Shown: piece after piece, positions 9,909 through 31,532 of the stretch | Layout: each line of letters starts with the position of its first letter | Numbering within the stretch: position 1 is the first letter of the stretch | DNA from: Liolophura sinensis | Lineage: Eukaryota > Mollusca > Polyplacophora > Chitonida > Chitonidae | DNA length: 64,000 nt | Direction: 5' to 3' | NCBI RefSeq assembly: GCF_032854445.1 | Contig: NC_088295.1 | Span: forward strand, 65,515,249 to 65,579,248 | Program-made: the position numbers and the translations under genes | Notes under the pieces: model-generated | The model's database searches: none | What the model saw: the letters and a program-made list of their open reading frames with translations, nothing else | What the model was told of the DNA's origin: nothing

Positions 9909-10285
9909 GTTTTACTCAACACAGGTCAGACAGGCCTAGGCCCACTATACAAACGGCCTACTTCCACACGTCAGCCCCTAGCTTACACAGCTGTGAGCAC
10001 GGACGCTGGAAGCAAAATGTGAAATCTCCGAAAGACAAGTGTATCTCGAATTCATTGTGGAATTATTGCGCTAATTTCATCTACACCGGTATCGGATATA
10101 GAGGGACGTTGTTGTGCTTCATTAACACGACAACAATGTGCCTGGCGTGCTGAAATTTTAGGCCTACACATTGCTGTCGTTGTTGTTGTTATTGATCAAG
10201 TGTGGTCTCACATGGTGGGAACGTCGTAATTGATGTCCATGTACAGCAGTTAGTGAGATCAGCGGACTTTCCGTGTTCTGGTTAT

Positions 10286-10295
10286 TTTCACTTTC
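10286..10295 (-). promoter_or_regulatory. ISRE-like GAAANNGAAA element upstream of left cGLR
   Basis: The plus strand reads TTTCACTTTC, which is GAAAGTGAAA on the other strand and matches the core that IRF transcription factors bind. It lies 291 bp upstream of the cGLR start codon. The equivalent site is kept in the right intact gene (31150-31159) and in the flanks of both truncated copies (13686-13695 and 27722-27731). Function is inferred from motif and position only. Confidence 0.45.
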
Positions 10296-10576
10296 ACAAC
10301 GGATGGAAATAATTGTGGCGTATAGAGGCTTACTACAGATATATTTGTGCATCGCCCTCTGGAACAGACTAATTGGAAATACAGTTTTCCAGTCGGTTGA
10401 CACAGGATTCCACCAGGAATATTTAGACACGCTACTAAAGCTGTATATTGTATCAAGCATAGTAGCATACCGTACGCAATTTCTTCTCTTCACAAATATC
10501 GGTGAATTTTACAGCCTGTGTGTAACTGACTTCAATGATTAAGTTTACAACTGCCCAGAAGATTTGAAAAATCAAG

Positions 10577-11860
10577 ATGTCGAAAGACTGTGAAATTTTA
10601 AACAGATTTCTTGAGGAGATTCACGAAGAGAAGTGTGTGTTTAAAGTTTCCAAGGAGGTCGTGAATGATTTAAAAGAGGCTGTTGAGGAACTGGTGAGAA
10701 AACTTGTGCATAAAGTTTCCTTCGCAACGGCGTATCCCTTGTTCAGCGGGTCGAAGATACTGTCTCGGGGTAGTTTCTATGAGGGGACAAAGGTAGAGGA
10801 ACCCAACGAGTTTGACTTTCTGGTTGAACTTGACGTGTTATCTCAACCCGGTCGTGTGGAGTTCCGCAGTGAATGTCCCGACTGTCCCGGCTACACTCAT
10901 GTCCTGTTTACTGACCCCGAACTTAAAAGAATGAACGCTGAGTTAGAAAGCTCACCCAAAGATAATTTTTTACGCCCTTACACAATAAGCAGTTACTACC
11001 GACGCTGTCTGCAAGAAGCATACAAAAAACTTTTCACGGGCAGTTGGAACTGGGTGCAAAATGTGAGAATTGACAAGGGGTGCGGCTTTCTACATCAACA
11101 TGAGCACATATCAAGCAACTGGGGCCCCAACACTTTACTGCAGTTAGTATGGACAACAAAAACACTTCCTGACGACGACATTTTGAAATGTATTACACTA
11201 ACTGTGGATATAACACCAGCAATCGTCTACCGTCCGCCAGAGTGCAATCCAGAAGGCGAAGGAGCAGACAAACACTGCCATGTGGTACCGGGTAGAAATG
11301 ATTATTGCAAACATGGTTCATCAATTAAATGTTGTTGCTGGAGAATTTCTCATTCGTCGAAAGAAACAGAAAAGATGAAAAATCTGAGCGACGTGCACAA
11401 GAAGATATATAAAATTTTCAAGGTCGTTTGCAGGAGGCAGTACGGCAGTTTGAGGTCGCTAACATCGTATATGCTTAAGACGGCTGTTCTTCATCACACG
11501 GATAAGTGTGACAGTAAGAACAGTATTGGGGCATGTACCATGGAGATACTAGAGGAACTCCTGACGTTTGCACAACAGGAATATCTTCCAGATTACTTTA
11601 TTCCTGAGAAGAACGTTTGGGCAAAAAATCATGAAAACAAGGTTACCACACCATTTCCCATTTTACAAAAGCTAATTTTGGAATTTAAAAGCATTGCAGG
11701 CTGTGCCGTGGAGGATTATGACTTTGAAGAATTGTTTGGCTATTTTAAAATGTTGATGGAAGAGTTTGCTAGAATTGAAGGTACCCAGTTGTTTGTGCAG
11801 TATGTCACATTACCAGGGTCAGATGGAAACAGTACTCTAAGCGCCACAAGCGACCAATAA
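10577..11860 (+). CDS. cGLR: cGAS-like receptor (cGLR), Mab-21 nucleotidyltransferase, left copy
   Basis: Single-exon 427-residue protein of the cGAS/Mab-21 family, whose active members make cyclic dinucleotides from ATP and GTP on sensing nucleic acid and signal through STING. A nucleotidyltransferase core is visible: G65-S66 in LSRGSFYEG, the metal-binding pair E78-F-D80 in PNEFDFLVELD, and a third acidic residue D211 in TLTVDITPAI. The C-terminal helical half matches the family at WRIS (255-258), LTSYMLKTAV (295-304) and DYFIP (339-343). The zinc thumb of vertebrate cGAS (H-x5-CC-x6-C after WRLS) is absent. Instead a Cys/His cluster (H233 to C254, ending CCC) lies just before the tryptophan. 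The start has a favourable AAG-ATG context and is identical in the right copy. The stop TAA overlaps an AATAAA (11856-11861); another AATAAA lies at 12113. Ligand and product are unknown. Confidence 0.9.
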   Translation: MSKDCEILNRFLEEIHEEKCVFKVSKEVVNDLKEAVEELVRKLVHKVSFATAYPLFSGSKILSRGSFYEGTKVEEPNEFDFLVELDVLSQPGRVEFRSECPDCPGYTHVLFTDPELKRMNAELESSPKDNFLRPYTISSYYRRCLQEAYKKLFTGSWNWVQNVRIDKGCGFLHQHEHISSNWGPNTLLQLVWTTKTLPDDDILKCITLTVDITPAIVYRPPECNPEGEGADKHCHVVPGRNDYCKHGSSIKCCCWRISHSSKETEKMKNLSDVHKKIYKIFKVVCRRQYGSLRSLTSYMLKTAVLHHTDKCDSKNSIGACTMEILEELLTFAQQEYLPDYFIPEKNVWAKNHENKVTTPFPILQKLILEFKSIAGCAVEDYDFEELFGYFKMLMEEFARIEGTQLFVQYVTLPGSDGNSTLSATSDQ

Positions 11861-13029
11861 AAACAAAACTGACCGAAGAGGCTTCATGGGTTTAAATGAC
11901 AGTAGTAAGGAAGCACAACTAATTAACATTTAAAAGAAATATTCTTAGAGAAGCCCTTTAATGTGATTTAGATGAGCACATACATAAATATTTTGTGTTA
12001 GTGGAGAACGAGTTATTCTACGTTCCTCAGGGATAGAAACACTTTGTTTACGGATAGAAATACTTGTTAACCTGCTGAAATGAAAATGGAGTTATGTCCC
12101 TTAATGAAACGAAATAAAACAGTGTTACAGCATTTGTTTGTGTAAAACAATTTAACGCTGGCTCCATTGTGTGCCGCGGGTCATTTATCCTACGTACCCA
12201 CCCGTTTGCAAGCGGGTCACAAGTGTTCAAGTGACATGTACAGGGTGTTCAAGTGACGTGTACCGGGTGCTTAATTGACGTACTCATTTCGCACATTCCA
12301 TTTAAAAATTGGGTAGATAAAAGGGTGGTGGGAATCCTTCCTGCAACAAGGAGGCTCATCACGTACACCCTAAGGATTCCTTCGTCGTCATATGACAGAA
12401 ATTGTTGAGTACGACGTTAAACCCCAAGCACTCACTCACTCACTCACCCAGGCTTGGTCGTATTGTCACTTTGGTCGCTTTCCGATCTCTGTGGCAAAAG
12501 ACGATCTCGACTGGGTGATCATCCAGCTTGAATACGTCAACCACAGGCGGTAACTAACTGAAACACCTCAAGCGAATGACGATAACCCGCCTACATAATA
12601 ACGCTGTTGTTTGCCTTTTGCAACCCTAAGCACGCACTCAATTACTCTAACGTTCTTTGTGCTGTTGAATTTTGTATCGCCTTGGTGAAAACGTGCCATG
12701 AAGTAGGGCAAATACCGCACTGGGTTTTGTTGGCAGATCTTTGAAGTAAAAACACAGGCCACAATTATATTCCTTTCCGTTTCATTGTTTAATGATAACT
12801 GAAACATTTTTAAGTGATCGAACTTTCCACTTGTCAGAATTCAAGTGTAACTCGGAACGAAAGTATGATGCAGTACACTCCATCTTCATCTTCCTGAAGC
12901 CAAAGTTATGACCAGGTGTACAGCTCTGTGAGTGTAACTGGAAATATTTTGGGAGCTATATTTAAATACAGGGCAAGATTACATGATCATGTAGGTCACG
13001 GCCTGCATGCGTTCCTGTGAGAAGAGAGG
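11861..13029. other. Left-arm spacer between intact and truncated cGLR
   Basis: This is the 3' flank of the intact gene followed by the 5' flank of the next cGLR unit, mirrored at about 28440-29630. It contains a candidate polyadenylation signal AATAAA at 12113-12118, the word AACGAGTTATTCT (near 12009) that is tandemly repeated in the right arm at 26.9-27.1 kb, and a dispersed SINE-like element. Short open frames at 12048-12230 and 12568-12807 have mirror copies only because the arms are duplicated. Confidence 0.6.
12310..12450 (-). mobile_element. Dispersed SINE-like repeat, GTGAGTGAGTG family (left arm)
   Basis: The reverse complement begins GTGAGTGAGTGAGTGCTTGG, then GGTTTAACGTCGTACTCAAC and CATATGACGACGAAGGAATC, and ends near CTTTTATCTACCC. 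The same element lies in the right arm (29000-29136) and independently at 35268-35405. It was therefore present before the inversion and is a dispersed family rather than an arm-specific feature. Confidence 0.85.
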
Positions 13030-13572
13030 TTGACCTCATTTACTAAACACAGGTCAGACAGGCTTACGGCTTACTTTCCACGAGGCATCCCTATACTACA
13101 TAGCTGAGACGATGGGAGCAAACGTAGTGGAGCTATTCTGAAGGACGGGTCGGAAGCTATAGACCACGTGATCTCCTTAGTAGCAACCGGCGTGGGTGAA
13201 GAAAATGGTCGTCCCCACGTTATTGCATAGGAAAATGCCTAATTTTGATCTTGTATCCGTTGAATTGATTTCTTGCTCTCCAGATAATCTGAGTATATTT
13301 GCAGAGATTTCGTGGTGTTATTTTGTACAACTAGACGTTACTGATCGCTAGCGAAGTGGCAAAAAGTGACCTTTTCCCCAGTGCTTTAACACTGCGCGGT
13401 CATTTTGTTGTAGACACGAAAGGATCGTCACATGACCTCCAACTTTAGACCCGTCTTACAGAATTGCGCTAAATTCATCCACACCAGTGTCAGATATAAA
13501 GGTATGGGTCGTGTGCTTCATTAACAAAAGGGAGTGTTTGCCGTGCTGAAAACTTTGGCCTACACATGACTG

Positions 13573-13598
13573 TCGTTGTTGTTGCTGTTGTTGTTGCT
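13573..13598. repeat. GTT-type microsatellite in cGLR flank
   Basis: A short GTTGTTGTTGCTGTTG tract lies about 100 bp before the ISRE-like site of the truncated left copy. A related GTTGTTGTTATTG tract sits at the same place before the intact gene (about 10176-10192), so it is a shared part of the cGLR 5' flank. Confidence 0.8.
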
Positions 13599-13685
13599 TA
13601 AGTTTTGTCGCTTCATGGAAATGTCGCGATTCTTGTTCATATACGAGAGCGAGTGAGAGAAGCGGGTTTTCCACGTCCTGATTAC

Positions 13686-13695
13686 TTTCACTTTC
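13686..13695 (-). promoter_or_regulatory. ISRE-like element in truncated left cGLR flank
   Basis: TTTCACTTTC followed by ACAACGG, the same sequence and context as the site before the intact gene at 10286. It is listed because its persistence in a pseudogene flank bears on whether the site is constrained or only inherited. Confidence 0.4.
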
Positions 13696-14047
13696 ACAAC
13701 GGGTGGCAATACTTGTGGTGCATAGATGATTTTCTACAGATTTATTTGTGCGGAGGTTTGTGGTCACGAACATCGTATATGCTTAAGACTGCCGTTCTTC
13801 GTTACAAGAACAAATGTGACAGTAAGAGCAGTCATCACACAAGTTCCCTTCTTACAAAAACTGATTGCAGAGTTTAAAAGTATTGCAGGCTGGGTCGTGG
13901 ACGTTTATGATTATGAAAGCTTGTTTGGCAACTTTAGAACGTTGATGGAATAGTTTCCTAGATTAAAGGCCAAGCTGTTTTTGTAATATGGTATAATACC
14001 ATGCGGGACACAATACTCCAAGCGGTACAAGGGACAGATGAGGCCGA

Positions 14048-14184
14048 TTTATTTATTTATTTATTTGACTGGTGTTTTACGCCGTACTCAAGAATATTTC
14101 ACATATACGGCGGCCAGCATTATGGTGGGAGGGAACCGAGCAAATTTCACGACCATCGGCAGGTTGATGGCAGACCTTCCCACC
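14048..14184 (-). mobile_element. SINE insertion private to left arm
   Basis: The antisense copy starts with an ATTTATTTATTT tail, then GGTGTTTTACGCCGTACTC, AAGAATATTTCAC and the GGCGGCCAGCATTATGGTGG block. It ends near CAGACCTTCCCACC and so lacks the tRNA-like head. The corresponding place in the right arm (near 27250) is uninterrupted, so this copy inserted after the duplication or was lost on the right. Confidence 0.85.
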
Positions 14185-14886
14185 ACACGACAAATAATAA
14201 CTGGCATTATTATGTACACCTCTACACCTCTTGATGTAAAGAAAGCGCCGTTCTCTGCAGGAACTTGTTATTCTTGTTATGTCAAAGTTACATCCCTTAG
14301 GTGATTGAATAAATTATTTTTACTCATTGAAAAGTTTGTAATACATTAATCGTTTACGTTTACTATTACAATTTCTGTGCATTATACCGTTGATGCGCTG
14401 TGTTCATATTAATTAGCATGTGTTACAAAATAAATGAGTCAATGTCAAAGTAAATATTAGGGATGGTATCTTAAAAAGTACCGCATGTCTTGAGCTGAAA
14501 TTTGGCCTACATGTAAAGCAGCATCGCTTGGGCCTAAAGGACCGTGTAATACAAAATTCACGACTCCAACCTCTTGTGTATTAGACTCAATGTTAGGTAA
14601 ATATGTGTCTTTTTAAATTCAATGGGTTATATGACCTGCGAACTGAAGCCGGCTTACCGCATATGGACAAATCAGGACTTATTTTGTGTCACTCGTGGAA
14701 AAGCTCTAAAGTTGTTAACTAATTAAAATCGATAATTTACTCATCATTCGGTAAAATTTGACTTCGTCGCCTTATATCAATACAGCCACAGGTAAACTCG
14801 TTCAAAGGTCAACCTGCCTTTGAGCTATTGGTATTTAACCTGCTTTATTTATCCCTTTTTGGCGACGTGGCTTTAAAACTGTTTGA

Positions 14887-17800
14887 AAGCTTGAATAAAT
14901 TTGTCTGTGACTGAATCATATGTTCCACATGGACACTTTTTGCCAGTTTTACATTTAGTGAACTGGCTTCGGTCCGACTGTGTGAAGTTACAAGTTTCTG
15001 AGCTGGCTTAAAATTGGCTTGACCGCATAGTCGTATGAATGCAAGCATATTCACAACCGGGTTGTATTGTAACTGGTTCAGATTTGACGTGTCTTAACGT
15101 ACGGTTGTATAACTGGGGTTTGAGTGAAATGCTTGACATGTGTTTTCATACATGTAGACTGTATACTGTGGCTGTCCAGTGTGGAAGAAGTGGAATATTC
15201 TGGAGCACTGCGTAAAATACCATAAAATCAAATGAGTTTATAAATAAATAGGTTAGCCTTTTTCGTGAGAATCGCGAATGCATGTTGGAACTTCAAAGCT
15301 AAATCAATTCAAGGCATTAAGGTGTAGTTGCAAAATTTCTAGAGTGGCTTCAAGCCACAATCATTCCTTGAATTCGGCTTTCCTGGCGCATCAAACTCTC
15401 AATGTTAGCGTGATCTTGGTTGATTTCAGAAAATGAGGCGAGGATTGAGATTAGTGGGTAAAATTCTTCAACTCTGACGAGTTGTAGCATCCGTTTTAGT
15501 TCACTGTAGCATGGAAGGCTTTTGAAAGTAGATATCAGTAGCATTCTGAACTTGAGTCGTCTGTGTTATAACCAGTGCTGACAAACATACAAACTGTGAA
15601 GTTCAAGGGAGACCACTCTCACTTACCAATGAGGCAATGATGACATTTTCCAAAACTTTCCAGTTTGTAAATTTCATAAATGTTTTAATGATTAAGATCC
15701 ACGCTGACTATGGATAATGGAGGACAGACCACAGAAGATGTTATCAGATATATTCACATATAGGGAGTGGAAAATGTCCAGGAGGGGAAATATCCAGGAT
15801 GGGAAAATTTCTGGGTGGAACGCGTCCTGGAAGAAATGTCCGGACCCCAGCATGCTAACCTCTTGGCCACGGAGGCCACACATGGATTTGTAATGTTTAG
15901 ATAAAATCTAAACAGGCAAATAAATGATCACATAAGTAAATAAATAAGATAAATCATGCATGACTACATTTAAAATGGATAACATTCTAGAATTGAACAT
16001 ACCAACCATACAATTTATTTGATTAGTATTTCACGCCGTACTCGAGAATATTTTCATACAAGACTTCAATTATGAATAAGGTGAGAGGCATATGGTTATA
16101 AGTTTTTCTTGTCTTTTTCATATACATGTAATGAGGAATATTTCTGTATATGGATATAGCCAACTATGAAATAAGTTGCCAGTGTTTATATTCTCAAGAT
16201 GTAGAATCTTCTAATCCCTCAACAGCTTCCTTTTTCCACATACATGTATGAGAACTCTGCAATTCCTTTAGACGTGAAGAGACCTCCATACCGGTACTTG
16301 GTTGCACTTGGGAACTGTGACAATGGCTTTGCACGGTGCAACAACCCTTTCTTACTGTGGTGAAAAAAAAAACATATGATGAAAATATAAAGCAATTTAC
16401 ACAAAATTAATTATCAGATATATATATTTATGATAGGATATGTTATCATAATTTAAATCCATACAAATAGGCCTACTGTAAATATAGCATTAAAGCTATT
16501 ACAAGATAGGTTATGAAAATTAAATTAAAATACTTCACAGAATTTTTCAAAATAAAAATCATCCAGAAATTACCATTTCCAAGCTTACATGTTAATTCTA
16601 TAAACAATACGATTAATAAACCTAAACGAAGACAACTAAAACATAATAAAAAAACATTGTTATGAGCAACAAATATATTTACTGCAAAGATTCAACTTTA
16701 TATACAAGTTTTACATAAAAAAAAGACACATTTAAGTGAGTAGTACATGAAAAAGAAATTTAGTGGTTTAACACAATTCCAATGAACGATGCACAACGCC
16801 GGTGTTTAACTTTTTAATTTGCATGATTTTTACACATGGAATAAGTTTTATTTTGATCATTTTTTTTTTGGACACATCAGATAGCTCTGAACGACAATAA
16901 ATTGAAATCATTTCGACAAATAGAAATGACTTTTAGGTTTTTACATTTAGAGTTAATATTTTTACCTTTAGCGTTTGTTTTAACATTCAAGATTAAAGAT
17001 CTTAGCATCTGTTGTGTTTTAGTTACTGAATCCGCTTTGGGCTGAAATTTGCCATTTTTCTAAATACATATTGGCTCAGAGTTTGATTCTCCATTTTCTT
17101 ATCATTCCTCTAAGCTAAAAGATGAATAACAAATTCGAGTTATGAATTCATGTACTCCATTTCACTTAAAGGTTATGGCTACTTTCATGTATAAAAGAGA
17201 TTTTTTATGAAGTTTGATAAATATTTTATGAGAAAAGCTTACGTGTTTGCATCAAATGTTTCACTTTAAGGCCTTTATGTGCTTGTGAAAGTCCATTTTT
17301 ACATACCAAATTTTAAAAGAGAGAAATGCAATACCTCCAATTTGACAAATGTATAACTTGTTGCAAACAAAGAGAGTCCTGTTTTCTTAGTTCCCTCAGA
17401 TTATGGGGATTAACTCTCTGTGGGAGGATTAGCTGGCGCACGCACACTTGCCTCTGCCACTTGTTTATTGCCCCATGCTCACATTTGTCTGCAAGCTGTA
17501 TGCCACAAGTAACAAGTACCCTTTTCTCTGTAAAGAAAAACCCAAAAATACTGACGAACACAGTTTTTCCTACCTTTAATCTTTCAGTGAGAAGATATGC
17601 TGAAACTTTCTGTACGTATGAACGCAAACAGTGAATTCCCTTTGAATACCCTAACCATTTAAATCCATGATGCTGTCCTGTTGACCGAAGCTTTGTTTAT
17701 TGTCCTCTTGCATGTGGCAAAGGGGGTGGGGTGGCGTTGGTGTTGATTCTACCCTGCATGCACGTGTGGAACACGCTTTACACCCCTCTCATACTATCAG

Positions 17801-18080
17801 ATGTACGGATTGAATATGTTTTTCTTTTCCCAAGCATGCACAGTGTAGCTAAATATATGCTAATGTAAATAAACGTTGTTTGTGCGTTACACCATGTTTG
17901 TTGTTTATACCATAGGAAACATACTATAATATGGCTATAGAAAAAAAAATGACCGAACTTGAATTCCAAATTATTGTTTTGATGAAAAACAAGCAAATGT
18001 CCTATTTCTATATCATGTACACATAACTTATAAGCCTTCAACTACCGCTTTGGTTGGTAAAGGCATCGATGTATATGGGG
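14887..18080. other. Spacer of the inverted duplication, AT-rich, no gene recognised
   Basis: This is the left part of the 11-kb spacer. It contains a 39-bp island (15607-15645) inverted relative to 25997-26035, a short antisense SINE remnant at about 16012-16062, and long AT-rich stretches. Overlapping open frames of about 100 codons occur on both strands at 17313-17634. I see no domain or splice structure in either. Confidence 0.5.
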
Positions 18081-18085
18081 GAGGG

Positions 18086-18225
18086 GGGCTTCTGTGGCTG
18101 AGTTGCTTAGCGTGCCAGCGCGGTGCAATGACCGAGGAATCTCTTACGCACACGGTCGCTGTGAGTTCATGTCCAGCTCATACTGGCTTTGTCCCCCGCC
18201 GTAAGCGGGAACAGACAGACATATA
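18086..18225 (+). mobile_element. SINE head fragment, sense
   Basis: This is the tRNA-related head of the abundant SINE: a CTGTGGCTGAGTTGCTTAGC A-box-like segment and a GTGAGTTCATGTCCAGCTC B-box-like segment, followed by part of the body. It lacks the AAATAAAT tail. It lies just beyond the 3' side of the minus-strand LINE. Confidence 0.75.
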
Positions 18226-18599
18226 TAATATTATTGGCGTTCCATTCATTGGAATGATTCACGCCTAAGCAATACACAGCATCAATTACAGATCATGGTA
18301 AAACACATAAAAGGTAGGCACAGAAAAAACAGTTCATAACAACAGAAACATGCAGATTGGAGTTCTGATCATATAAAGCAATAATAAAACACACTAATAT
18401 ACACAAGCAGCATTTCATGCAAAAAAGAAATCAAAACAAGATTACAGCTCATGACAAAATGCACAAGTAGGTTAAACCAAAAGCATGTAGTGAGGAATTA
18501 TGGTCCTGTGACAGAGCACCACAAAAATTTAAAACCTATGGCAAATGACAATGTAGTTTCCAACCGCTTGAAACACTTTTTGCACGTTTCTTACTGGCT

Positions 18600-21500
18600 T
18601 AAGAACAGATTCCATACCCGGTCTACGCACCCCAGCACAAATGACATCATGAAAAAGTTTCGTTCTTTAGGTTGTAAACCTGTTGCATTTAAACAAAAAA
18701 TGTTCAACAGTTTCTTCAACAAGACAACTTTGACACAGACTCGAATCACGTACTTTAAACGTGTCGAGATATGAATTTTATGGGATATGGCCTGTTTGTA
18801 ATCTATAAAACATAACTTCAGTTCTACGTGAATGTTAACAAACGGGAATGTTAACAAACGAGAGGAAACTCTGGGGTGGAATGGAAAGAAGAACCTTCCT
18901 TTGACAGCGGTTTTCCAATGACTCTGCCACAGACCAATAAAATGTGACTGCATGTTGCTAATACTGTCTGATGGTGTAAAACTAATATTTCAGGTAACAC
19001 TGGTGCAAGCAAGAGCTTGTTTTGCCAGGAAATCTGCCAATTCATTTCCAGCTATGCCAGCTTGTCTTGGGATCCAACCAAGACTGATATTAACTCCTTT
19101 AAAGTGTAGCCCTGTACACATATGTAAAACCATCTAACACCATGGATGAGGATACACTCCAAATGAAGTTTCTTATGGCTTGTAAAGCACTTTAAGAATC
19201 CGTAAAAATGACAACATTATTCGGAATAAAGTCTAGCACAAAACACAGGGATGTTAAAATAGCCATAAGTTCGGCAGCAAATATTGAAATGAAATCGGAT
19301 AATCGGAAGCTTTTATTATACTTGAGCTGTTGGATACAAAATGCAGCCCCCACTTCGCCACTCTCTGGACATTTGGATGCATCCCTGTTAATATTCAGGC
19401 AGTGTCTGAAATTTTCGCAGACGTAACTCATTGCAAAGGATTTCATGACATTTACAGGATCAGATTTCTTAATTACACTTTGAAGATCCAATGAGATGTT
19501 GGTAGGTGCCAAGTGCCAAGGTGGGAAGTTAGGGACAGAGATTTTTTGAAGGCAACTTGTGTTACAGCCCGAACGTTCAATTAACCTCTGAGGTTAAATG
19601 GCTTATACTTCTCATGAACATTTAAAGTGCTGTCATATTCCCAAGAGATGCCTTCAACACAAGAGAATATTTGAGAGTGCGCATGTATCTCCTAGGATCC
19701 AATGGCTACTTATTACATATCACATGTAAAACATTAAGAGGGGTGGTCTAAAGCGTCCCTGGACAAATCCTGAGAGCAGCACATTGAACAGCATCCAATT
19801 TACATTTAGGAGATAAGCAAGCAGAGTCAAAAGCCTCACAACAAATGTCTAGACGCGATATTATCAGCGTTCTATACAAGATTAGAAGGCAGGGTTTATC
19901 CCCCCCAACCCCCAACCCCGGCCAGGATTTCTCAGATATAGCCCGCATAAGGTTAAGGACCTTCCGACATTTTGTAACAATCATTTCAGTATGTTCCGAC
20001 CATGTAAGTCTCTTGTCAAATACAACGCCGAGATATCTGAATGATGAAGAGACATTAATTGCACTGTTCTCTATAAGAAGTGGTACTGATTTCTTCGGAC
20101 TTAGCTAGAGAGTGAAATCGCCACAGTTTGCTCCATCTGGTAATTTCATTCAAGGCCTGCTCCATTTACATCTCTGCTATGTTTATATTCTTAGCACTGA
20201 ACCCAACAGCTTTATTGTCAGCTTAAAGGGAGCAATTTATGTTTGGGTTGAGGACCCATGGTAAATCGTTGATTTATTGAACAGTGTTGGGGATAAAACA
20301 CTTCCTTGTGGGTACCATTTTCAACAGAAACCGGCAGTGAAAAGTCAGTACCAATGCGAACCTGCATTGTGCAGTGAGAGAGAAAGTCCTTCACCCAACC
20401 AACCATCCTACCTCCAATACCCAATCCCTTCATCTTAATTAACAGGCCACACCTCCACAACGTATCATATGGCTTTTCAATATCGATAAAGGCTACCAGG
20501 TAACATTCTTTACTCGCAAGTGACCTCTTAATGGATGTTTCAAGGAAGACAACATAGTCTGTAGTACTTTACCTTTCCTAAAACCAATCTGAAAGATAGA
20601 ATAGGCTTCGTTCTTATTTAGAAACCATTCGAGTCTTGACTTAATCATTTTTTCCATGATCTCACAGAGCGCTGATGTGAGAGAAATCAGCCTATGTGAT
20701 GAAGCTGCAGATGGATCTTTGCCAGGCTTTGGCACTGGGATGACAAAAGCTGTTTTTCCATGAAACCGGAACTTTTATATTTGCCCATATGGTGATAAAA
20801 AACAAAAGTAACACATATAGACTGATTTCGGGGAGGTGCTTAACCATAGAGTAACTGATCCAATCTTCCCCTGGGGAGGAGTCCTTTGTACCACTTAATG
20901 CCTGCTTAAGTACCATCAGAGAAAAATCTTCATTAATGGGCATATCGTCAAACACGATGTTATCAAAACTTTGTCTCCCTTCCACCTGTTTCTTATGAGT
21001 AATGAACTCCTCGCTATAATTATTAGAGCTGGAGACAAATGAGAAGCTGTCAGCTAGCACATTACACTTATCTACATTCGTAACGTGTAAAACACCATTA
21101 GTCACAATACCTGGCACACACACAGATTTCTTCTTCTCGTTTATGGGCTCTTACCTGCTGCCATACATTCTTAATAGGTGTGTTACGATTTATGTTGGAA
21201 CAGAACCTACGCCAGTGCTCCTTTTGTGCCCTTTTTATAACCCTCCGGGCCTGGGCTTTAGTCCCTTTCAACACAAGGATATCACTATACAACCTTGTAT
21301 GCTGTGCTCTATTTTTAGCTTTTTTCCTTTCCTTGATAGCTTGCAAACATTCCTCTGTCCACCAGGGAACAGGTACTTTTCCTGGAATGTTCCCATAAGT
21401 TTCTGGAACAGCCTCACTAGCTGCTGCATTTAAAGCAGTAATAATGTTGTCTGAAAACTTATTCACATCACTGTCATACAAGTCCTGATTGATGTATAAA

Positions 21501-22269: not shown

Positions 22270-22672
22270 ATGCTGAGCTGTGGAAATTTCCACAGTTTAC
22301 ACACTTAGGGGCATTTTTGTTAGGACAGTCTTTGTAATCATGCCTTTCGCTGCATCAAGGGCACCTCAGATTACCACAGCATTCGGCAGCTACATGATTA
22401 AAACATTGCCAACTGAAGCATCGAATAACAGGGGGAATATACTGTTTAACCTGGGATAGCTCAAAACCCAAGGACACCTCATCAGGGATATTAACATCAT
22501 CAAAATATAGCAGCATACAGGACGTGGGGATTTCCTCCATGCCTTTCGTCATGCGTTCAACTTTTACACACTTAAAACTTTTCATTGCCCCCAGGACTTC
22601 ACTCTCAGTAACCTCCTCCCCAATACTATACATTACGAAGCTTCTGTTTGAACCCTGCACGCAACATCTCAC
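22270..22672 (-). pseudogene. LINE ORF1 (gag-like, zinc knuckles), broken
   Basis: The start frame covers 22672-22355 and ends in RCFSWQCFNHVAAECCG, a first CCHC knuckle. An in-frame stop follows RCP. The same frame then continues with CSERHDYKDC and CVNCGNFHSSAYRGC, the second and third knuckles. The protein would be the nucleic-acid-binding partner of the retrotransposon. At least one nonsense change inactivates it. Confidence 0.8.
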
Positions 22673-23149
22673 CCCATTATAGAATCTATCTTTAGCAATT
22701 TCTTCACTTGACTCTGACTGTTACACGTGATGAGTAAATCTCGAGACTGCAGCTTCTTCACAACTTTCACAACACCCACTGCCTACTGGAGTGCAGTACC
22801 AAACTTAAATAGGCTTAAGCTGGCCACAAGGGGGGGGGGGGTCTACTCACTGCGGACATAACTATGTTACAAGATTTCACCTGTCTCTCCGTGTGACGCC
22901 TGACGCTTTTGCCTTCGTCCCTTGGTCTCTGTCAGTACTGACAGATTGCCCTCTGCTGCGCTTTCTACGAGTTACTCTTGATGTCGCGAAGCCCATGTTG
23001 TCCTCTTCTTCCTCCTCCATGCTAATAGACTACGTGATGAAAAGTAGTAGTACAGAACACTATTATACGTGCACTGACAGGAGATGTTATTACAGCACAG
23101 TTAGAGAGAGATAGAGAGTGACAGAATGACCCTGGGGCGACTCTGGGTT

Positions 23150-24420
23150 AGGGAGAGACAACAGGAGCCCTGAAACACAAAGTGCTAACTTACAGTGCGA
23201 TTACAGCAGATATCTACACTAGTACAGCTACTACCTCAATACAAAAGCAAAGAATTACAAACATACCAAGTAACTGTATAACACTATAATACATAAAAAG
23301 AATACAAACACACAATCCTATTTACCACAGCAACAAGTTAACAACAACAACACCAGGTTGCTGAAAAGTAAACTTAAATACCAAACAAAATAGTTCAACC
23401 GAGCCGAAAATTCCCTCAGCAGAAAATTAACGGACCAAGCACAACCTAATAAATGTACCATACAGGTCAGAAATACATCACATTCCTCGAGAAACCCACG
23501 AATTTTTCGGAGCAGAGAAAAATCACGTCCAACCTGACTGGAGGAAGGGAGGTAGCTCGCGTGCGAAGGAACACATTTCAGCAACTTGAGCATAGTTGTG
23601 GGTTTGCCCAGGCTCAGCCCGATTTCCTCCCACCATTAAAAATTTCGTAATATTTATTAACTATGACGATTTTTGCGCATTACATCATTACTGTGTTGTG
23701 TTCATAGTAATTGACGTGAGTGGCTTCTGTAGATTTCAATGTTGGTGCCTATAAGTGGTGAAAAGCCCTTGAAAAAGCGTTCAGGTTGTGGTACATGGAG
23801 TTTGTTAGAGGTCATTTATCTTTCACCAGTATGGCAGAATTCTTGAGCCTACGCTGCTAGTTAAAGGGCCTGTTTTGATTTTACACCGGCTATAGCAGAC
23901 CAACATACGCCGTTTCTCAGTTTCCCGCAGTGAGGTCACTTAAAGTGACATGGGCGCCCAAATATTAGGCATTTTTGCGTTATTACAGAATGACATGTGT
24001 ATCGGCTATTTTTCTCAAGAAGTAGAAGTCACAAGCTTTTCTTTAATCCCACCCCCAGCATAGTGCGTTGAGTGAATGCTAAAAAATAACAACAACAGCC
24101 CCCCATCCCCGCCCCTGATGTTAATTTAGTGGAAATAGAGCATGCGTACAGCGTTCGGTAAATTTCATATCTAAACAAACACAGCTGATTACACCAGTAA
24201 ACGAATGACTTACGGCTCACTCGTGACAGGATCGGCCAAAAACAGAGGCGTAAAAATGAGCTTGACAGGTTGACAATCAAGTCTAGAGTCGTAATTGGTG
24301 ATACGTTTAAACGGTAGAGTGCACTGAAGAAAGAAAAGGGTCTCACGAAGCACGAAGTTGTCTACGCTCGCGTAACCAGCGAAAACATCTCGCTGGTACT
24401 TCTCTCGCCCTTCCCGCTGG
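23150..24420. other. Spacer sequence, no gene recognised
   Basis: No coding region was identified. A word at about 23680-23720 (GCGCATTACATCATTAC, then GTGTTCATAGTAATT) resembles 14381-14420 of the left cGLR 3' flank in the same orientation, which may mark a further decayed cGLR unit. Poly-C and AAC-type simple tracts occur near 24080. Confidence 0.4.
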
Positions 24421-24423
24421 TTC

Positions 24424-24665
24424 ACAACAGAGCTCTCACAGGAGTGCAGACTGTGACCTACTAAATCATGTAATCTTTCTTAGTTTTAAATATAACTCCG
24501 ATAAAATTTCAATAACTCCGATAAAATACCTGTAAACTGGCTACTCGAAGATGAAGATTTAAAGAACTGCATTAGACTTTCGGTCTGCCATACACTTTAA
24601 GTCAGACAAGTGGAAAATTCGATCATTTAAAAAAAGTTTCAGTTAACATTATATAGATAGATAAA
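24424..24665 (+). repeat. Copy of the cGLR 5'-flank segment
   Basis: This parallels 31549-31770 in the same orientation, and less closely 28446-28700. Shared words are CACAGGAGTGCAGAC, GTGACCTACT, ATAACTCCGATAAAA and GACAAGTGGAAAATTCGATCA. It represents the upstream flank of another minus-strand cGLR unit whose coding part is no longer present here. Confidence 0.75.
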
Positions 24666-24718
24666 TAGATTATAACTGTAGCTTGTGTCTTTGTCCTTAT
24701 AACACGATATATAACCAC

Positions 24719-24721
<3 letters not shown>

Positions 24722-24784
<63 letters not shown>
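24722..24784. repeat. (TA)n microsatellite
   Basis: A pure TA dinucleotide tract of about 63 bp. It generates false Ile-Tyr repeat open frames on both strands. Confidence 0.99.
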
Positions 24785-24787
<3 letters not shown>

Positions 24788-25261
24788 GGAATGAGGCAAC
24801 TCATACACAAGCCACTGGAGGTACAGGACATCATATATGTACTCCCTTTGGAAATACCTGCAACAGCAATATTTCCAGTAAAGAAACAGAGAAGGCAAAG
24901 CCACGTTGTTCTTTCCGAAATCAACGTCCGGCGAGTGCCGAAAATATTTATTACAGTTCAAACTTACATTTTAATCAAAGTAAGGACACAATACGAACAT
25001 AACGGGCTTCCATACTTTGCGAATTACTATTTTGTGAACAGTCCAAAACTACATAAATCTTATCCATTTAGGTCACGGTGGTTAATTATCAGTATCTAGA
25101 AATTTTATTTAAAGCATACTATCAATAGTGCGCTGACAATTGTTGGTGGAAACGGACTACAAAATATAATATCAGCGTATGTGTATATTTAAGAAAAAGA
25201 AAAATGTGTAGATGGGGAGGGGGAGCACTACAACAATGACTTACATTTTGTTCTTTTACTC

Positions 25262-25660
25262 TTGGACATTTCAATCTGTTTAAGAATAAGCCTTTTACTT
25301 ACATTGTGAAGAGTTGTCTCTTATATTTAACGTATGTAATTTATATTAATTTGATTTCTGTTTTACGCCTTACTCAAGAATATTTCACACGGCGCAAGCT
25401 ACCACAAACGTTCATGGCGCCCCCTGCAAATGACTGAAACTTTTCTACATTTTCTTGTCCATTTTTTGAGAATGAGATTTCACATTATTTCTACTTCTTC
25501 GAAAGAGTGGAAAATTATTTAGCAGCAATTTTTGATTTATTTGCGATGTTGGCAGCTTTGTTTAGAGCTGGTACGACATGGCACTGTTTGTTAGCGCCTG
25601 CGTCATCTGCCGGACTCTAGACGATTGTCGGTAGACGATTGACTCTGGGTCTCTCAATAA
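25262..25660 (+). repeat. Paralogous segment with empty MITE site and cGLR remnant
   Basis: This matches 31815-31943 followed by 32936-33190, and so skips the MITE present in the other copy. At 25386-25404 the uninterrupted site reads CACACGGCGCAAGCTACC. The last part (about 25570-25640, GTACGACATGGCACTGTTTG) aligns with cGLR coding sequence around residues 220-236 on the minus strand. It is therefore the 3' relic of a cGLR unit lying next to the flank copy at 24424. It also contains an antisense SINE core remnant (about 25351-25398). Confidence 0.75.
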
Positions 25661-26115: not shown

Positions 26116-26914
26116 TCAAACTGTTTTAAAGCCACGTCGCCAAAAAGGGGTAAAGAAAGCAGATTAAATACCAATAGCTCAAAGCCAACTTGGCCTTTAA
26201 ACCAGTTTAACTCTGACCGTATTGATATAATGCGAAGCAGGCAAATTTTACCGAATTATCGATTTTAATTAGCAACTTTCGAACTTTCCCAGGCGTCACA
26301 CACAAATTAAGTCCTGTCTGATTTGTCCACATCCGGTAAGCCGGCTTCAGTGCGCAGGTTACATGACCAATTGCATTGAAATAAAGACACATATTTACCT
26401 TAACATTGGAGTCGTGAATTTTGTATTACACGGTCATTTAGGCCTATATGCAAATGGAATAAATGATGTTACGTCCCCAGCGATGTTGCTTTACATGTAG
26501 GCCAAATTTCAGCTCAAGACATGCGGTACTTTTTAAGATACCATCCCTAACATTTACTTTGACAATGACTCATTCATTTTGTAATATATGCTAATTAATA
26601 TGAACACAACGCATCAATGATGTAATGCACAGACGTTGTAATAGTAAACATAAATGGTTAATGTATTACAAACTTTACAATGAGTGAACATAATTTATTT
26701 AATCACATAAGGGATGTAACTTTGACATCCGATCAAGTCACTCTGATGCACACGTATTAAATTTTTTACCCTAACGGATAGTTCGACTTTTCGTGGAAGC
26801 AATCTGTAAGCCTAGGCCTGTCTGACCTGTTGAAAATTTCGTTAAAATAAGGCACACAACGCCAGTTACATTAATTTTCAGAGACATATTTTTTTAAGCA
26901 GGCCAGATCTCTCC

Positions 26915-27115
26915 CATAAAACGGAGAATAACTCGTTTTCAACGAACACAAATAACAAGTCACTCCAGAAAATGGAGATTAGCTCGTTCTCGTTTAACTA
27001 AAATAACAAGTCTTCCAAAAAACAGAGTATAACTCAATCTCCACAAACAAAAATAATAAGTCTCTGCAGAGATGAGAGAATAATTAGTTCTCAACGAATA
27101 AAAAATAATTTTGTT
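26915..27115. repeat. About 50-bp tandem repeat private to right arm
   Basis: Four degenerate copies share GGAGAATAACTCGTTTTC, AACGAACACAAATAACAAG and following bases, with a period near 50 bp. The left arm retains only part of one unit (about 14249-14280). The word GAATAACTCGTTCTC also occurs once in the 3' flank of each intact cGLR (about 12009 and 29427), so the array appears to derive from cGLR flank sequence. Adjacent bases at 26809-26835 repeat the GTCTGACCTGTTG word found upstream of cGLR units. Confidence 0.75.
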
Positions 27116-27309
27116 TATACTGAATCCATTAACTACCACTGAAGGACAATGCTCTGAGAATACTTACATTAACGATACCTTACGACTAATGCTTTCTTTA
27201 CATCAAGAGGTATATATAATACCGCTAGCTATTATTCGTCGCGTGTGCATGGTCTCATTTGTCCCTTGGAGTATTGTGTTCACCTAGAGCTGCATGGTAA
27301 TAAGCCGTA

Positions 27310-27650
27310 TTACAAAAACAACTTGGCATCTATTCTAGCAAACTGTTCCATCAACATTCTAAAGCAGCCAAACAAGCTTTCATAGTCATGATCCTCCACG
27401 ACACAGCCTGCAATGCTTTTTAAACTCTGCAATCAGTCTGTGTAAGATGGGAATCCTGTGTGATGATCTTCTCTCTATGATTCCTTGCCCAAACAGTCTT
27501 CTCAGGAATAAAGTAATCTGGAAGATGCCCATCTTCTGCAAATGTCAGAAGTTCCTCTCATATCTCCACGGTTCACGCTCCAATACTGCTCTTACTGTCA
27601 CATTTGTCCGTGTGATGAAGAACGGCAGTCTTAAGCATATACGATGTTAG
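27310..27650 (-). pseudogene. Truncated cGLR pseudogene, right arm
   Basis: Only the C-terminal coding part remains, starting at residues equivalent to about 293 of the intact protein and fused to a cGLR 5' flank at the same junction as in the left arm. It keeps more sequence than its left partner (words for CDSKSSIGA, HLPDYFIPEK and VWARNH can be read). It carries a stop after SSIGA, another stop in the next helix, and a frameshift before the FPILQK-equivalent region. No catalytic residues remain. Confidence 0.85.
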
Positions 27651-27721
27651 CGACCTCAAACCTCCGCACAAATAAATCTGTAGAAAACCATCTGTGCACC
27701 ACGATTATTTCCACCCGTTGT

Positions 27722-27731
27722 GAAAATGAAA
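27722..27731 (+). promoter_or_regulatory. ISRE-like element in truncated right cGLR flank
   Basis: GAAAATGAAA occupies the position equivalent to the GAAAGTGAAA site of the intact genes. It has one change in the free NN spacer, so the GAAANNGAAA pattern is preserved. Confidence 0.4.
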
Positions 27732-28999
27732 GTAACCAGAACGTGGAAAAAAACGCTTCTCTCACCCACTCTTGTACAAATGTATATGTACAACAATCAC
27801 GACGTTCTCACGAAGTGAGACCAAATTTGAGCAACAACAAGAAAAACGACAGTCACGTGTGGGCCAAAGTTTTCAGCACGGCGGGCACTTTCTTGTCGTG
27901 TTTAATGAAGCACAACTCCCATACCTTTATATCTGACACCAATGTGTATGAATTTAGCGCAATTCTGTAAGACGGTTCTGAAGTTGGAGGTCACGTGACC
28001 AACCTTTCGTGTCTAAAACAAAATGGAAGCGCAATGTTAAAGCATTGGGGAAAAGGTCACTCTTTGCCTAGTTGTGCAAAATAACGTCACGAAATCTCTA
28101 CAGAAGTACTCAGACTATCTGGAAAACTGAAAAATCATACGAATTCAACGGATACAAGATCAAAATTAGGCATATTCCTATGCATTAACGTGGGGAGGAC
28201 CCTTTTTTCTTCACCCACGCCGTTTGTTACTAAGGAGATCACGTGGTCTCTAGCTTTCGATCCGTCTTACAGAATAGTTCCACTATGCATTCGAGGTACA
28301 TTCGGAGATCTCACGTTTTGCTCCCATCGTCTCTGCTCACATCTATGTAGGCTGGGGGATGCATGGTGGAAATAAGCCATAATCCAAGGTCTGTCTGACC
28401 TGTGTTTAGTAAAGTCAGGTCAACGTCTCTTTCACAGGAACACTGGCCGTGACCTACATGATCATGCAATCTTGCCTTGCTTTAAATATAGCTCTCAAAA
28501 CATTTCCAGTTGCAGTCACAGAGCTGTACACCTGGTCATAACTTTGGCTTCAGGAAGATGAAGATGGAGTGTACTGCATCAGACTTTCGTTCCGAGTTAC
28601 ACTTGAATTCTGACAAGTGGAAAGTTCGATCACTTAAAAATGTTTCAGTTATCATTAAACAATGAAACGGAAAGGAATATAATTGTAGCCTGTGTTTGTA
28701 CTTCAAAGATCTGCCAACAAAACCCAGTGCGGTATTTGCCCTACTTCATGGCACGTTTTCACCAAGGCGATACAAAAATTCAACAGCACAAAGAACGTTA
28801 GAGTAATTGAGTGCGTGCTTAGGGTTGCAAAAGGCAAACAACAGCGTTATTATGTAGGCGGGTTATCGTCATTCGCTTGAGGTGTTTCAGTTAGTTACCG
28901 CCTGAGGTTGATGTATTCAAGCTGGATGATCACCCAGTCGAGATCGTCTTTTGCCACAGAGATCGCAAAGCGACCAAAGTCACAATACGACCAAGCCTG

Positions 29000-29136
29000 G
29001 GTGAGTGAGTGAGTGCTTGGGGTTTAACGTCGTACTCAACAATTTCTGTCATATGACGACGAAGGAATCCTTAGGGTGTACGTGATGAGCCTCCTTGTTG
29101 CAGGAAGGATTCCCACCGCCCTTTTATCTACCCAAT
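29000..29136 (+). mobile_element. Dispersed SINE-like repeat, GTGAGTGAGTG family (right arm)
   Basis: Sense copy equivalent to 12310-12450 of the left arm. It begins GTGAGTGAGTGAGTGCTTGG and runs to CCTTTTATCTACCC. Confidence 0.85.
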
Positions 29137-29631
29137 TTTTAAATGGAATGTGCGAAATGAGTACGTCAATTAAGCACCAGGTACACGTCACTTGAACACC
29201 CTGTATATGTCACTTGAACACTTGTGACCCGCTTGCAAACGGGTGGGTACGTAGGATAAATGACCCGCGGCACACAATGGAGCCAGCGTTAAATTGTTTT
29301 ACACAAACAGATGCTGTAACACTGTTTTATTTCGTTCCATTAAGGGACATAACTCCATTTTCATTTCAGCAGGTTAACAAGTATTTCTATCCGTAAACAA
29401 AGTGTTTCTATCCCTGAGGAACGTAGAATAACTCGTTCTCCACTAACACAAAATATTTATGTATGTGCTCATCTAAATCACATTAAACGGCTTCTCTAAG
29501 AATATTTCTTTTACATGTTAATTAGTTGTGCTTCCTTACTACTGTCATTTAAACCCATGAAGCCTCTTCGGTCAGTTTTGTTTTAATAGGTCGCTTGTGG
29601 CGCTCAGAGTGCTGTTTCAATCTGACCCTGG

Positions 29632-30864
29632 CTATGTGACATACTGCACAAACTGGGTACCTTCAATTTCATCAAACTCTTCCATCAACATTTTAAAATA
29701 GCTAAACAGTCTTTTACAGTCATAATCCTCCACGGCACAGCCTGCAATGCTTTTAAATTCCAAAATTAGCTTTTGTAAAATGGGAAATGGTGTGGTAACC
29801 TTATTTTCATGATTTTCTGCCCAAACGTTCTTCTCAGGAATAAAGTAATCTGGAAGATGTTCCTGTTGTGCAAACGTCAGGAGTTCCTCTAGTATCTTCA
29901 TGGTACACGCCCCAATACTGTTCTTACTGTCACATTTGTCCGTGTGATGAAGAACAGCAGTCTTAAGCATATACGATGTTAGCGACCTCAACCTGCCGTA
30001 TTTTCTCCTGCAAACGACCTTGAAAATTTTATATATCTTCTCGTGCACGTCGCTCAGACTTTTCATCTTTTCTGTTTCTTTCGACGAGTGAGAAATTCTC
30101 CAGCAACAACAGTCAACTGATGAACCATGTTTGCAATAATCATTTCTACCCGGTACCACATGGCAGTGTTTGTCTGCTCCTTCGCCTTCTGGATTGCACT
30201 CTGGCGGACGGTAGACGATTGCTGGTGTTATATCCATAGTTAGCGTAATACATTTCAAAATGTCGTCGTCAGGAAGTGTTTTTGTTGTCCATACTAACTG
30301 CAGTAAAGTGTTGGGGCCCCAGTTGCTTGATATGTGCTCATGTAGACGTAGAAAGCCGCACCCCTTGTCAATTCTCACATTTTGCACCCAGTTCCAACTG
30401 CCCGTGAAAAGTTTTTTGTACGCTTCCTCCAGACAGCGTCCGTAGTAACTGCTTATTGTGTAAGGGCGTAAAAAATTATCTTTGGGTGAGCTTTCTAACT
30501 CAGCGTTCATTCTTTTAAGCTCGGGGTCAGTAAACAGGACATGAGTGTAGCCGGGACAGTCGGGACATTCACTGCGGAACTCCACACGACCGGGTTGAGA
30601 TAACACGTCAAGTTCAACCAGAAAGTCAAACTCGTTGGGTTCCTCTACCTTTGTCCCCTCATAGAAACTACCCCGAGACAGAATCTTCGATCCGCTGAAC
30701 AAGGGATACGCCGTTGCGAAGGAAACTTTATGCACAAGTTTTCTCACCAGTTCCTCAACAGCCTCTTTTAAATCATTCACGACCTCCTTGGAAACTTTAA
30801 ACACACACTTCTCTTCGTGAATCTCCTCAAGAAATCTGTTTAAAATTTCACAGTCTTTCGACAT
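29632..30864 (-). CDS. cGLR: cGAS-like receptor (cGLR), Mab-21 nucleotidyltransferase, right copy
   Basis: 410-residue paralogue of the 427-residue protein at 10577-11860, in opposite orientation. Residues 1-141 are identical, including G65-S66 and E78/D80, and D211 is kept (TLTMDITPAI), so the catalytic triad is intact. I count about 20 replacements, all after residue 141. Many change charge (H173R, K251D, E323K, E384K, E385R, A398D, R399E). One codon is deleted near residue 405. The C terminus is 17 residues shorter because TTA is TAG after QYVT, and a second in-frame stop follows a few codons later. The Cys/His cluster before WRIS is kept. The start is the same as in the left copy. Like its partner it lacks the vertebrate zinc thumb. 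It is probably functional or recently functional; ligand unknown. Confidence 0.88.
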   Translation of the reverse strand: MSKDCEILNRFLEEIHEEKCVFKVSKEVVNDLKEAVEELVRKLVHKVSFATAYPLFSGSKILSRGSFYEGTKVEEPNEFDFLVELDVLSQPGRVEFRSECPDCPGYTHVLFTDPELKRMNAELESSPKDNFLRPYTISSYYGRCLEEAYKKLFTGSWNWVQNVRIDKGCGFLRLHEHISSNWGPNTLLQLVWTTKTLPDDDILKCITLTMDITPAIVYRPPECNPEGEGADKHCHVVPGRNDYCKHGSSVDCCCWRISHSSKETEKMKSLSDVHEKIYKIFKVVCRRKYGRLRSLTSYMLKTAVLHHTDKCDSKNSIGACTMKILEELLTFAQQEHLPDYFIPEKNVWAENHENKVTTPFPILQKLILEFKSIAGCAVEDYDCKRLFSYFKMLMEEFDEIEGTQFVQYVT

Positions 30865-31149
30865 CTTGATTTTTCAAATCTTCTGGGCAGTTGTACACCT
30901 AATCATTGAAGTCAGTTACACACAGGCTGAAAAAATTCACCGACATTGGCGAAGGGATGCAAGTGCGTACGGTATGCTACTATGCTTGATACAATATACA
31001 GCTTTAGTAGCGTGTCTAAATATTCCTGGCGGAATCCTCAGTGTCAACCGACTGGAAAGCTGTATTTCCAATTAGTCTGTTCCAGAGGGCGATGCACAAA
31101 TATATCTGTAGTAAAGCCTCTATACGCCACAATTATTTCCACCCGCTGT

Positions 31150-31159
31150 GAAAGTGAAA
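31150..31159 (+). promoter_or_regulatory. ISRE-like GAAANNGAAA element upstream of right cGLR
   Basis: GAAAGTGAAA lies 286 bp upstream of the start codon of the minus-strand cGLR, in the same context as the left site (TGTGAAAGTGAAAATAACC). The matched position in both intact genes suggests regulation by an IRF-like factor. This is inference from motif only. Confidence 0.45.
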
Positions 31160-31532
31160 ATAACCAGAACGCGGAAAATACGGTGATCTCACTGCTGTAC
31201 ACGTACATCAATTACGACGTTCCCACCATGTGAGACCACACTTGATCAATAACAACAACAACGACAGCAATGTGTAGGCCTAAAATTTCAGCACGGCTGG
31301 CACTTTCTTGTCGTGTTAATGAAGCACAACAACGTCCCTCTATATCCGATACCGGTGTAGATGAAATTAGTGCAATAATTCCACAATGAATTCGAGATAC
31401 ACTTGTCTTTCGGAGATTTCACATTTTGCTTCCAGCGTCCGTGCTCACAGCTGTGTAAGCTAGGGGCTGACGTGTGGAAGTAGGCCGTTTGTATAGTGGG
31501 CCTAGGCCTGTCTGACCTGTGTTGAGTAAAAC

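What the first reader, a model, noticed from the sequence alone, without database searches (positions are those of the whole stretch)
9909..31532. Convergent pair of cGAS-like receptors in a 5-kb-arm inverted duplication
Two intact single-exon cGLR genes and two matching truncated copies form mirror-image arms (9909-14886 and 26116-31532) around an 11-kb spacer. Tandem duplication and deletion came first, because both arms share the same truncated second gene; inversion-duplication followed. Convergent transcription of near-identical genes, or snap-back of a read-through transcript, could give double-stranded RNA, which is a possible cGLR ligand. That link is inference.
Basis: partly seen in the sequence, partly recalled or inferred. 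Interest (0 to 1): 0.85.

Follow-up and report, generated by a model that had tools for sequence, protein, structure and literature searches.

The report
Flipped twin cGAS-like genes kept alike
In a chiton genome, one of two neighbouring copies of a cGAS-like gene seems to have been flipped by a small inversion, and the two copies were later made nearly identical by gene conversion; this is a clean example of a familiar process, and nothing seen here supports the idea that the pair makes double-stranded RNA for its own sensor.

Summary
The mirror-image arms are real: 9909-14886 (+) and 26116-31532 (-), with cGAS/Mab-21-family frames at 10577-11860 (+) and 29632-30864 (-) and a matching truncated pseudogene in each arm. 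Assembly statistics match the chiton Liolophura japonica. Right flank 31546-33183 has a direct copy at 24432-25639. That copy and the left arm are two halves of one tandem unit, cut at the same point (31532/31546) with 13 bp missing. So a ~7.5-kb direct tandem duplication followed by a ~14.5-kb inversion of 9909-24431 explains the layout without an inversion-duplication. The arms are 97.2% alike over their outer ~3 kb but 87% further in. The step is sharp, also present in noncoding DNA, and the tract reaches the breakpoint, which implies gene conversion after the inversion. The dsRNA idea is unsupported: the mRNAs are same-sense, each gene has a poly(A)-site-like sequence ~0.3 kb past its stop, about two-thirds of the 11-kb spacer is repeats, and the proteins are acidic (pI 5.9), unlike known nucleic-acid-sensing cGLRs. 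Closest known: Drosophila Hsp70 and Amylase palindromic pairs.

The parts
9909..14886 (+). left arm L: copy of the right arm, flipped
26116..31532 (-). right arm R, in the orientation of the rest of the cluster
   Evidence: cluster orientation
10577..11860 (+). cGAS/Mab-21-family gene, copy 1, 427 aa, uninterrupted frame; G65-S66, E78, D80, D211 present
29632..30864 (-). cGAS/Mab-21-family gene, copy 2, 410 aa (17 residues shorter at the C-terminal end)
13463..14035 (+). truncated second gene in L (upstream piece 13463-13751 fused to the C-terminal third of the frame); pseudogene
27250..27963 (-). truncated second gene in R, same deletion junction; pseudogene
9909..12931 (+). homogenised outer tract of L (84 mismatches in 3,012 columns); counterpart in R about 28515-31532
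   Evidence: (change point)
12932..14886 (+). older inner tract of L (213 mismatches in 1,643 columns; 14036-14278 left out)
31546..33183 (-). flank F of the right arm, overlapping a further pseudogene (about 32938-33740)
24432..25639 (-). F', direct copy of F in pieces; ends at the point where the left arm begins (R 31546 against 31532)
9909..24431 (.). inferred inverted segment (about 14.5 kb)
   Evidence: inference
13134..13465 (+). dispersed repeat (38 near-full-length scored matches elsewhere) shared at the homologous place in R (about 27902-28285), so inserted before the unit's duplication
4457..9909 (+). mobile element: 53-bp tandem array 4457-9633 plus a 276-bp end 9634-9909 with 40 scored matches elsewhere; abuts the left breakpoint and lacks the ~25 further bp seen in four of five fetched loci
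18211..23554 (-). decayed multi-copy LINE-like element (endonuclease piece over Pfam's cut-off; reverse transcriptase and RNase H pieces below it), nested in another repeat (16515-18193 with 23568-23636)
12113..12143 (+). poly(A)-site-like sequence 253 nt after the stop of copy 1 (AATAAA then GT-rich); counterpart at 29331 (-), about 300 nt after the stop of copy 2

Best explanation
This is a local cluster of cGAS/Mab-21-family (cGLR-like) nucleotidyltransferase genes evolving by birth and death. Shown by sequence: (1) an older tandem duplication gave an intact gene plus a neighbour that was truncated and took a repeat insertion; (2) a ~7.5-kb unit, flank F plus arm, exists twice, and the second copy is split at the F/arm boundary into F' (direct) and the left arm (inverted). 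Inferred from these: the unit was duplicated head to tail, then the arm half, with the DNA beyond it, was flipped by a ~14.5-kb inversion (9909-24431) whose left end abuts a 53-bp-array mobile element, giving a convergent pair. Inferred from the identity step: (3) after the inversion, gene conversion between the inverted arms rewrote ~3 kb holding the whole intact gene with upstream and downstream DNA, so the genes look young while the rest of the arms keeps the older divergence. Functionally (inferred from the family) each gene is an independent unit coding for a sensor enzyme that makes a nucleotide messenger on binding an unknown, possibly non-nucleic-acid ligand. The inverted layout itself most likely matters only in that it lets the two copies correct each other.
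For: Shared cut point: R reads through 31546|31532, while its partial copies end at 24432 (=31546, direct) and begin at 9909 (=31532, inverted); only 13 bp are unaccounted for. F/F' divergence (K80 0.152, 0.134, 0.245) fits, in two of three pieces, that of the inner arms (0.15-0.17). 13 of 15 cluster matches on C1 are on the minus strand and both plus-strand ones are in the left arm, which is therefore the flipped one. Step in identity: best change point 12932, log-likelihood gain 87.4 against at most 9.66 in 2,000 permutations; noncoding DNA alone 39/1,731 against 213/1,643 mismatches, gain 75.9, not permuted. The first 161 bp of the arms at the breakpoint are identical, while F/F' just across it is 86% identical, so homogenisation stopped where homology stopped, that is after the inversion. 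Protein constraint: copy 1/copy 2 dN/dS 0.38, Fisher p 0.0065; copy 1/copy 3 0.30, p 5e-13.
Against: The reciprocal mark at the other breakpoint is missing: the ~25 bp absent from the mobile element's end were not found in the window on either strand (24-base probe, up to 6 substitutions), so the left junction is unexplained; one of five fetched copies of the element ends at the same place without an inversion known there. The third piece of F/F' is more diverged (0.245) than the other two. Direction of conversion and number of tracts are unknown; identity within the tract varies from 94 to 99% by 200-base window. No reads, no second chiton genome, no expression data and no enzyme assay were available. 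The structure prediction failed.
Confidence: 0.78

Rival explanations
1. True inversion-duplication: the arm was copied and inserted in reverse in one event, and F' is an unrelated tandem copy of the flank.
For: It also yields inverted arms sharing the truncated gene. The left breakpoint at a mobile element would suit a template-switching event, and the missing reciprocal mark at that breakpoint is no problem for it.
Against: It leaves unexplained why F' ends within 13 bp of the point where the left arm begins and why two of three F/F' pieces have the divergence of the inner arms.
Confidence: 0.15
2. The pair is a dsRNA source: read-through transcription gives a hairpin or duplex that triggers or tunes the encoded sensor, or feeds RNA interference.
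For: About 5 kb of inverted homology, with identical stretches up to 204 bp; some cGLRs sense dsRNA (PMC9980059).
Against: The mRNAs are same-sense; antisense needs read-through of 17.8 kb past a poly(A)-site-like sequence after each stop and past further AATAAA/ATTAAA signals (38 on +, 31 on - between the stops; background 1.65 per kb per strand, so the signal alone is weak evidence). About two-thirds of the spacer is multi-copy DNA. The proteins are acidic, pI 5.4-5.9, unlike the >8.5 of nucleic-acid-sensing cGLRs.
Confidence: 0.03
3. Assembly artefact: two haplotypes mis-joined head to head.
For: The assembly rests on 14x HiFi reads averaging 8.3 kb, shorter than the 21.6-kb structure.
Against: No N in 92 kb; arm divergence 2.8-13% against 1.24% heterozygosity; different flanks; a longest identical run of 204 bp is resolvable by HiFi reads.
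Confidence: 0.04

Closest known systems
Drosophila Hsp70 (Hsp70Aa/Ab, Ba/Bb) and Amylase (Amy-p/Amy-d) palindromic gene pairs (PMC3924832; passages seen)
   Same: Linked, mirror-image, near-identical paralogs homogenised by ectopic gene conversion.
   Different: Here only the outer ~3 kb of each arm is homogenised, the pair seems to have arisen by an inversion inside a tandem cluster, and the gene is of the cGAS family. Conversion is inferred from one genome, not from shared polymorphisms or across species.
Animal cGAS-like receptors, Li et al. 2023 (PMC9980059; section 6 and passages seen)
   Same: Both Mab-21 domains, the Gly-Ser and three acidic catalytic residues, and several family members in one genome, as in bivalves.
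   Different: Arg in place of Gln/Thr before GS, 128 instead of 50-90 residues before the last Asp, acidic pI, and a Cys/His-rich stretch at residues 233-254.

Membership tests
cGLR (criteria of Li et al. 2023) | Motif h[QT]GS [X8-20] [DE]h[DE]h [X50-90] h[DE]h | tested here: not met
   Catalytic residues are present (G65-S66, E78, D80, D211), but the residue before GS is Arg, not Gln/Thr, and the second gap is 128, not 50-90. Hence filed as a cGAS/Mab-21-family, cGLR-like protein, not as a cGLR by the strict rule.
cGLR (criteria of Li et al. 2023) | Homology across the NTase core and the C-terminal helix bundle | tested here: met
   PF03281 (31.3 and 24.9 bits) and PF20266 (35.4 and 34.9 bits), cut-off 24.1 for both; best PDB hits are cGAS chains, E 4.7e-7 for copy 1 and 2.7e-8 for copy 2. 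Copy 2's NTase score is marginal.
cGLR (criteria of Li et al. 2023) | Predicted structural homology to cGLR/CD-NTases | tested here: inconclusive
   The AlphaFold2 model from a two-sequence alignment failed: pLDDT 29.7, pTM 0.18.
cGLR that senses nucleic acid | Basic protein, pI above 8.5 (a correlation in Li et al., not a definition) | tested here: not met
   pI 5.92, 5.92 and 5.37 for copies 1-3 (Biopython, not the paper's program). The five C6 relatives give 8.65-9.24, from frames whose N-termini are guesses.
cGLR | Synthesis of a nucleotide second messenger on ligand binding | not testable with these tools
   Needs a biochemical assay. A partner is plausible: five STING-domain matches on C12 (matches, not genes).
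Palindromic paralog pair under gene conversion | Inverted, linked paralogs with arm identity too high for the age of the duplication | tested here: met
   Step from 2.8% to 13.0% mismatch at 12932, reached by 0 of 2,000 permutations, and present in noncoding DNA alone.
Palindromic paralog pair under gene conversion | Shared polymorphisms or concerted evolution across species | not testable with these tools

The most novel reading that the evidence does not exclude
A branch of acidic cGAS-like sensors (its spread beyond this genome is untested), with a Cys/His-rich stretch and an altered GS motif, recognises a non-nucleic-acid ligand, and an inversion turned two copies into a self-correcting palindrome that protects the working gene from the decay seen in its truncated neighbours.
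Probability: 0.2. Interest if true: 0.6.

Novelty: new member of a known kind. Interest (0 to 1): 0.36.

Why it matters
The locus keeps a sequence of events readable: tandem duplication, inversion at a definable point, then conversion that stops at the breakpoint. It is a compact example of how an immune-type gene cluster gains inverted copies and of how conversion resets apparent gene age (noncoding mismatch 2.3% in the converted tract against 13% beside it), so that dating the pair from the genes alone would be wrong by several-fold. It also marks an acidic cGAS-like branch worth testing for a non-nucleic-acid ligand.

Tried and rejected
dsRNA source: not adopted, for lack of support. Assembly artefact: rejected on divergence, gaps and run length. 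Constraint as the cause of the identity step: rejected because noncoding DNA shows it alone. Mobile-element insertion simply interrupting the arm at 9909: rejected, because no continuation of the arm (31533 onward) was found to the left of the element. Two oppositely oriented 53-bp arrays as a pair of breakpoints: considered; array 1 (1-1730, extending left of the window to about -1204) lacks the 276-bp end, so nothing ties it to the inversion. AlphaFold2 of copy 1: failed, so no fold search was run. Rfam (gathering scores) and tRNA scans of the window: nothing. Paper searches for a precedent: 'cGLR' with 'gene conversion' gave three papers, none on cGAS-like receptors by title; the capped listings (20 of 758; 15 of 172; 12 of 21; 10 of 756; 10 of 72; 10 of 27,824) showed no such case in title or shown abstract.

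Rows dropped before counts: one search leaves out self-matches inside the 53-bp arrays and matches under 80 columns; the change-point test leaves out gapped columns and left-arm positions 14036-14278, where a dispersed repeat has no counterpart. The genome search scores only the best candidates (40 of 69, 6,015 and 4,691 first-look candidates), so repeat counts are lower bounds. The family tree warns of long branches; only the grouping of copies 1-3 is used.
Full report
Where it is. The window is C1:65515249-65579248 of a 609-Mb animal genome in 632 contigs. C1 is 96,433,062 bases and C9 37,343,639. The published Liolophura japonica (chiton) assembly has 632 scaffolds, a longest scaffold of 96,433,062 and an N50 of 37,343,639 (PMC11068029, passages seen; its total of 609,495,693 is 31 kb above the 609,464,459 given for G000). 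The mitochondrial cox1 reads through under the invertebrate code. The organism name is an inference from matching statistics.

Observation. The inverted arms, the two long frames and the two truncated copies are present at the stated coordinates. Both frames carry the Mab-21 nucleotidyltransferase and helix-bundle domains, copy 2's nucleotidyltransferase domain just over the cut-off, and resemble cGAS chains of the PDB. They belong to a wider cluster. Of 16 matches to copy 1 in the genome, 15 lie on C1 between 65500661 and 65548921; 13 of these 15 are on the minus strand and the two on the plus strand are in the left arm. A third intact copy (429 aa, C1:65504508-65505797, minus) branches outside copies 1 and 2. 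In two other places near-identical paralogs of the family share one orientation: four of four on C6 and two of two on C7.

Rearrangement. Right of the right arm lies a flank F (31546-33183). A direct copy F' lies at 24432-25639, in pieces. R reads straight through 31546|31532. F' stops at the equivalent of 31546, and the left arm, inverted, starts at the equivalent of 31532. So F' and the left arm are the two halves of one further copy of F plus arm. Reversing 9909-24431 would bring 9909 next to 24432 and restore that order but for 13 bp. This reads as a direct tandem duplication followed by a simple inversion. The left arm is the flipped one, since the rest of the cluster is on the minus strand. 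Two of three F/F' pieces (K80 0.152 and 0.134; the third 0.245) and the inner arms (0.15-0.17) have one age. The tandem duplication inside the arm is older at three of four measured stretches (K80 0.24-0.31; 0.18 in the reading-frame piece). The truncation and a dispersed repeat at 13134-13465 are shared by both arms and so preceded the unit's duplication.

Left junction. The arm begins where a 276-bp element end (9634-9909), with 40 scored matches elsewhere, stops. That end belongs to a mobile element with a 53-bp array. Four of the five fetched loci continue for about 25 bp that the window's copy lacks; the fifth stops where the window's does. The missing piece was not found in the window. 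Whether the element was broken by the inversion or inserted near it is open.

Gene conversion. Arm identity changes sharply at left-arm position 12932: 84 mismatches in 3,012 columns outside, 213 in 1,643 inside. The log-likelihood gain is 87.4; the largest of 2,000 permutations gave 9.66. Without the coding sequence the contrast remains (39/1,731 against 213/1,643; gain 75.9, not permuted). The tract holds the whole gene, 0.67 kb upstream and about 1.07 kb downstream. The arms are identical for the first 161 bp from the breakpoint, while F and F' just across it are 86% identical. A conversion before the inversion would have had to end by chance at the later breakpoint; one after it must end there, for lack of homology. 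So conversion most likely followed inversion. Its direction is unknown.

Function. Copies 1 and 2 evolve under protein constraint (dN/dS 0.38, Fisher p 0.0065; against copy 3, 0.298 and 0.305). The catalytic Gly-Ser and three acidic residues are present, but the residue before GS and the spacing to the last Asp depart from the cGLR rule of Li et al.. A Cys/His-rich stretch (residues 233-254) is kept in copies 1-3, partly in one pseudogene and less in others. The pI of 5.4-5.9 is like that of the acidic cGLRs for which Li et al. suggest a non-nucleic-acid ligand. STING-domain matches exist on C12 (five matches). That the proteins are sensors feeding STING is inference from the family.

dsRNA. 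Convergent identical genes give mRNAs of the same sense. A duplex would need transcription to run 17.8 kb into the opposite arm. Each gene is followed by AATAAA and a GT-rich stretch (12113 and 29331; 253 and about 300 nt past the stop; copy 2 has another signal at 29587), and 38 (+) and 31 (-) AATAAA/ATTAAA signals lie between the two stops, at a background of 1.65 per kb per strand. About two-thirds of the spacer matches multi-copy DNA, including a decayed LINE-like element. No RNA data were available, so the idea is unsupported, not disproved.

Verdict. The structure is real and its history unusually legible, but each step is familiar. The Drosophila Hsp70 and Amylase palindromes are close precedents (PMC3924832, passages seen). 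On checking, the confidence in the best explanation was lowered from 0.80 to 0.78, because one of five element copies ends where the window's does and the left junction stays unexplained.

Noticed in passing
L024 (C3:12257700-12261400): A copy of the 53-bp-array mobile element forms a palindrome of at least 3.7 kb, 97% identical, with a 44-bp centre; a second face-to-face pair of ends was listed at C1:16830737-16831318. The family may form inverted pairs repeatedly.
   Followed up: partly
window 1-1730 and 4457-9633: Two 53-bp tandem arrays in opposite orientation; the first extends left of the window to about -1204 and lacks the 276-bp end of the second.
   Followed up: partly
window 31935-32944: About 1-kb insert with 91-bp terminal inverted repeats (92%) inside flank F, missing from F': looks like a small DNA transposon inserted after the duplication.
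   Followed up: no
window 3910-4016 (-): Looks like a Cys/His-rich coding exon between the two arrays; read by eye, not tested.
   Followed up: no
window 58271-59203 (-): Frame with a whole class C GPCR seven-helix domain (PF00003, E 1.7e-66), with another long frame at 53355-54746 that has no Pfam match.
   Followed up: no
G000 contig C99: Seven cox1 matches about 15.5 kb apart: probably a concatemer of the mitochondrial genome in the assembly.
   Followed up: no
G000:C6:11091900-11196900: Four near-identical basic cGAS-like genes (pI 8.65-9.24, TGS motif) in one orientation, 93-97% alike in DNA in the five of six pairs compared: better candidates for nucleic-acid sensors than the window's pair.
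   Followed up: partly
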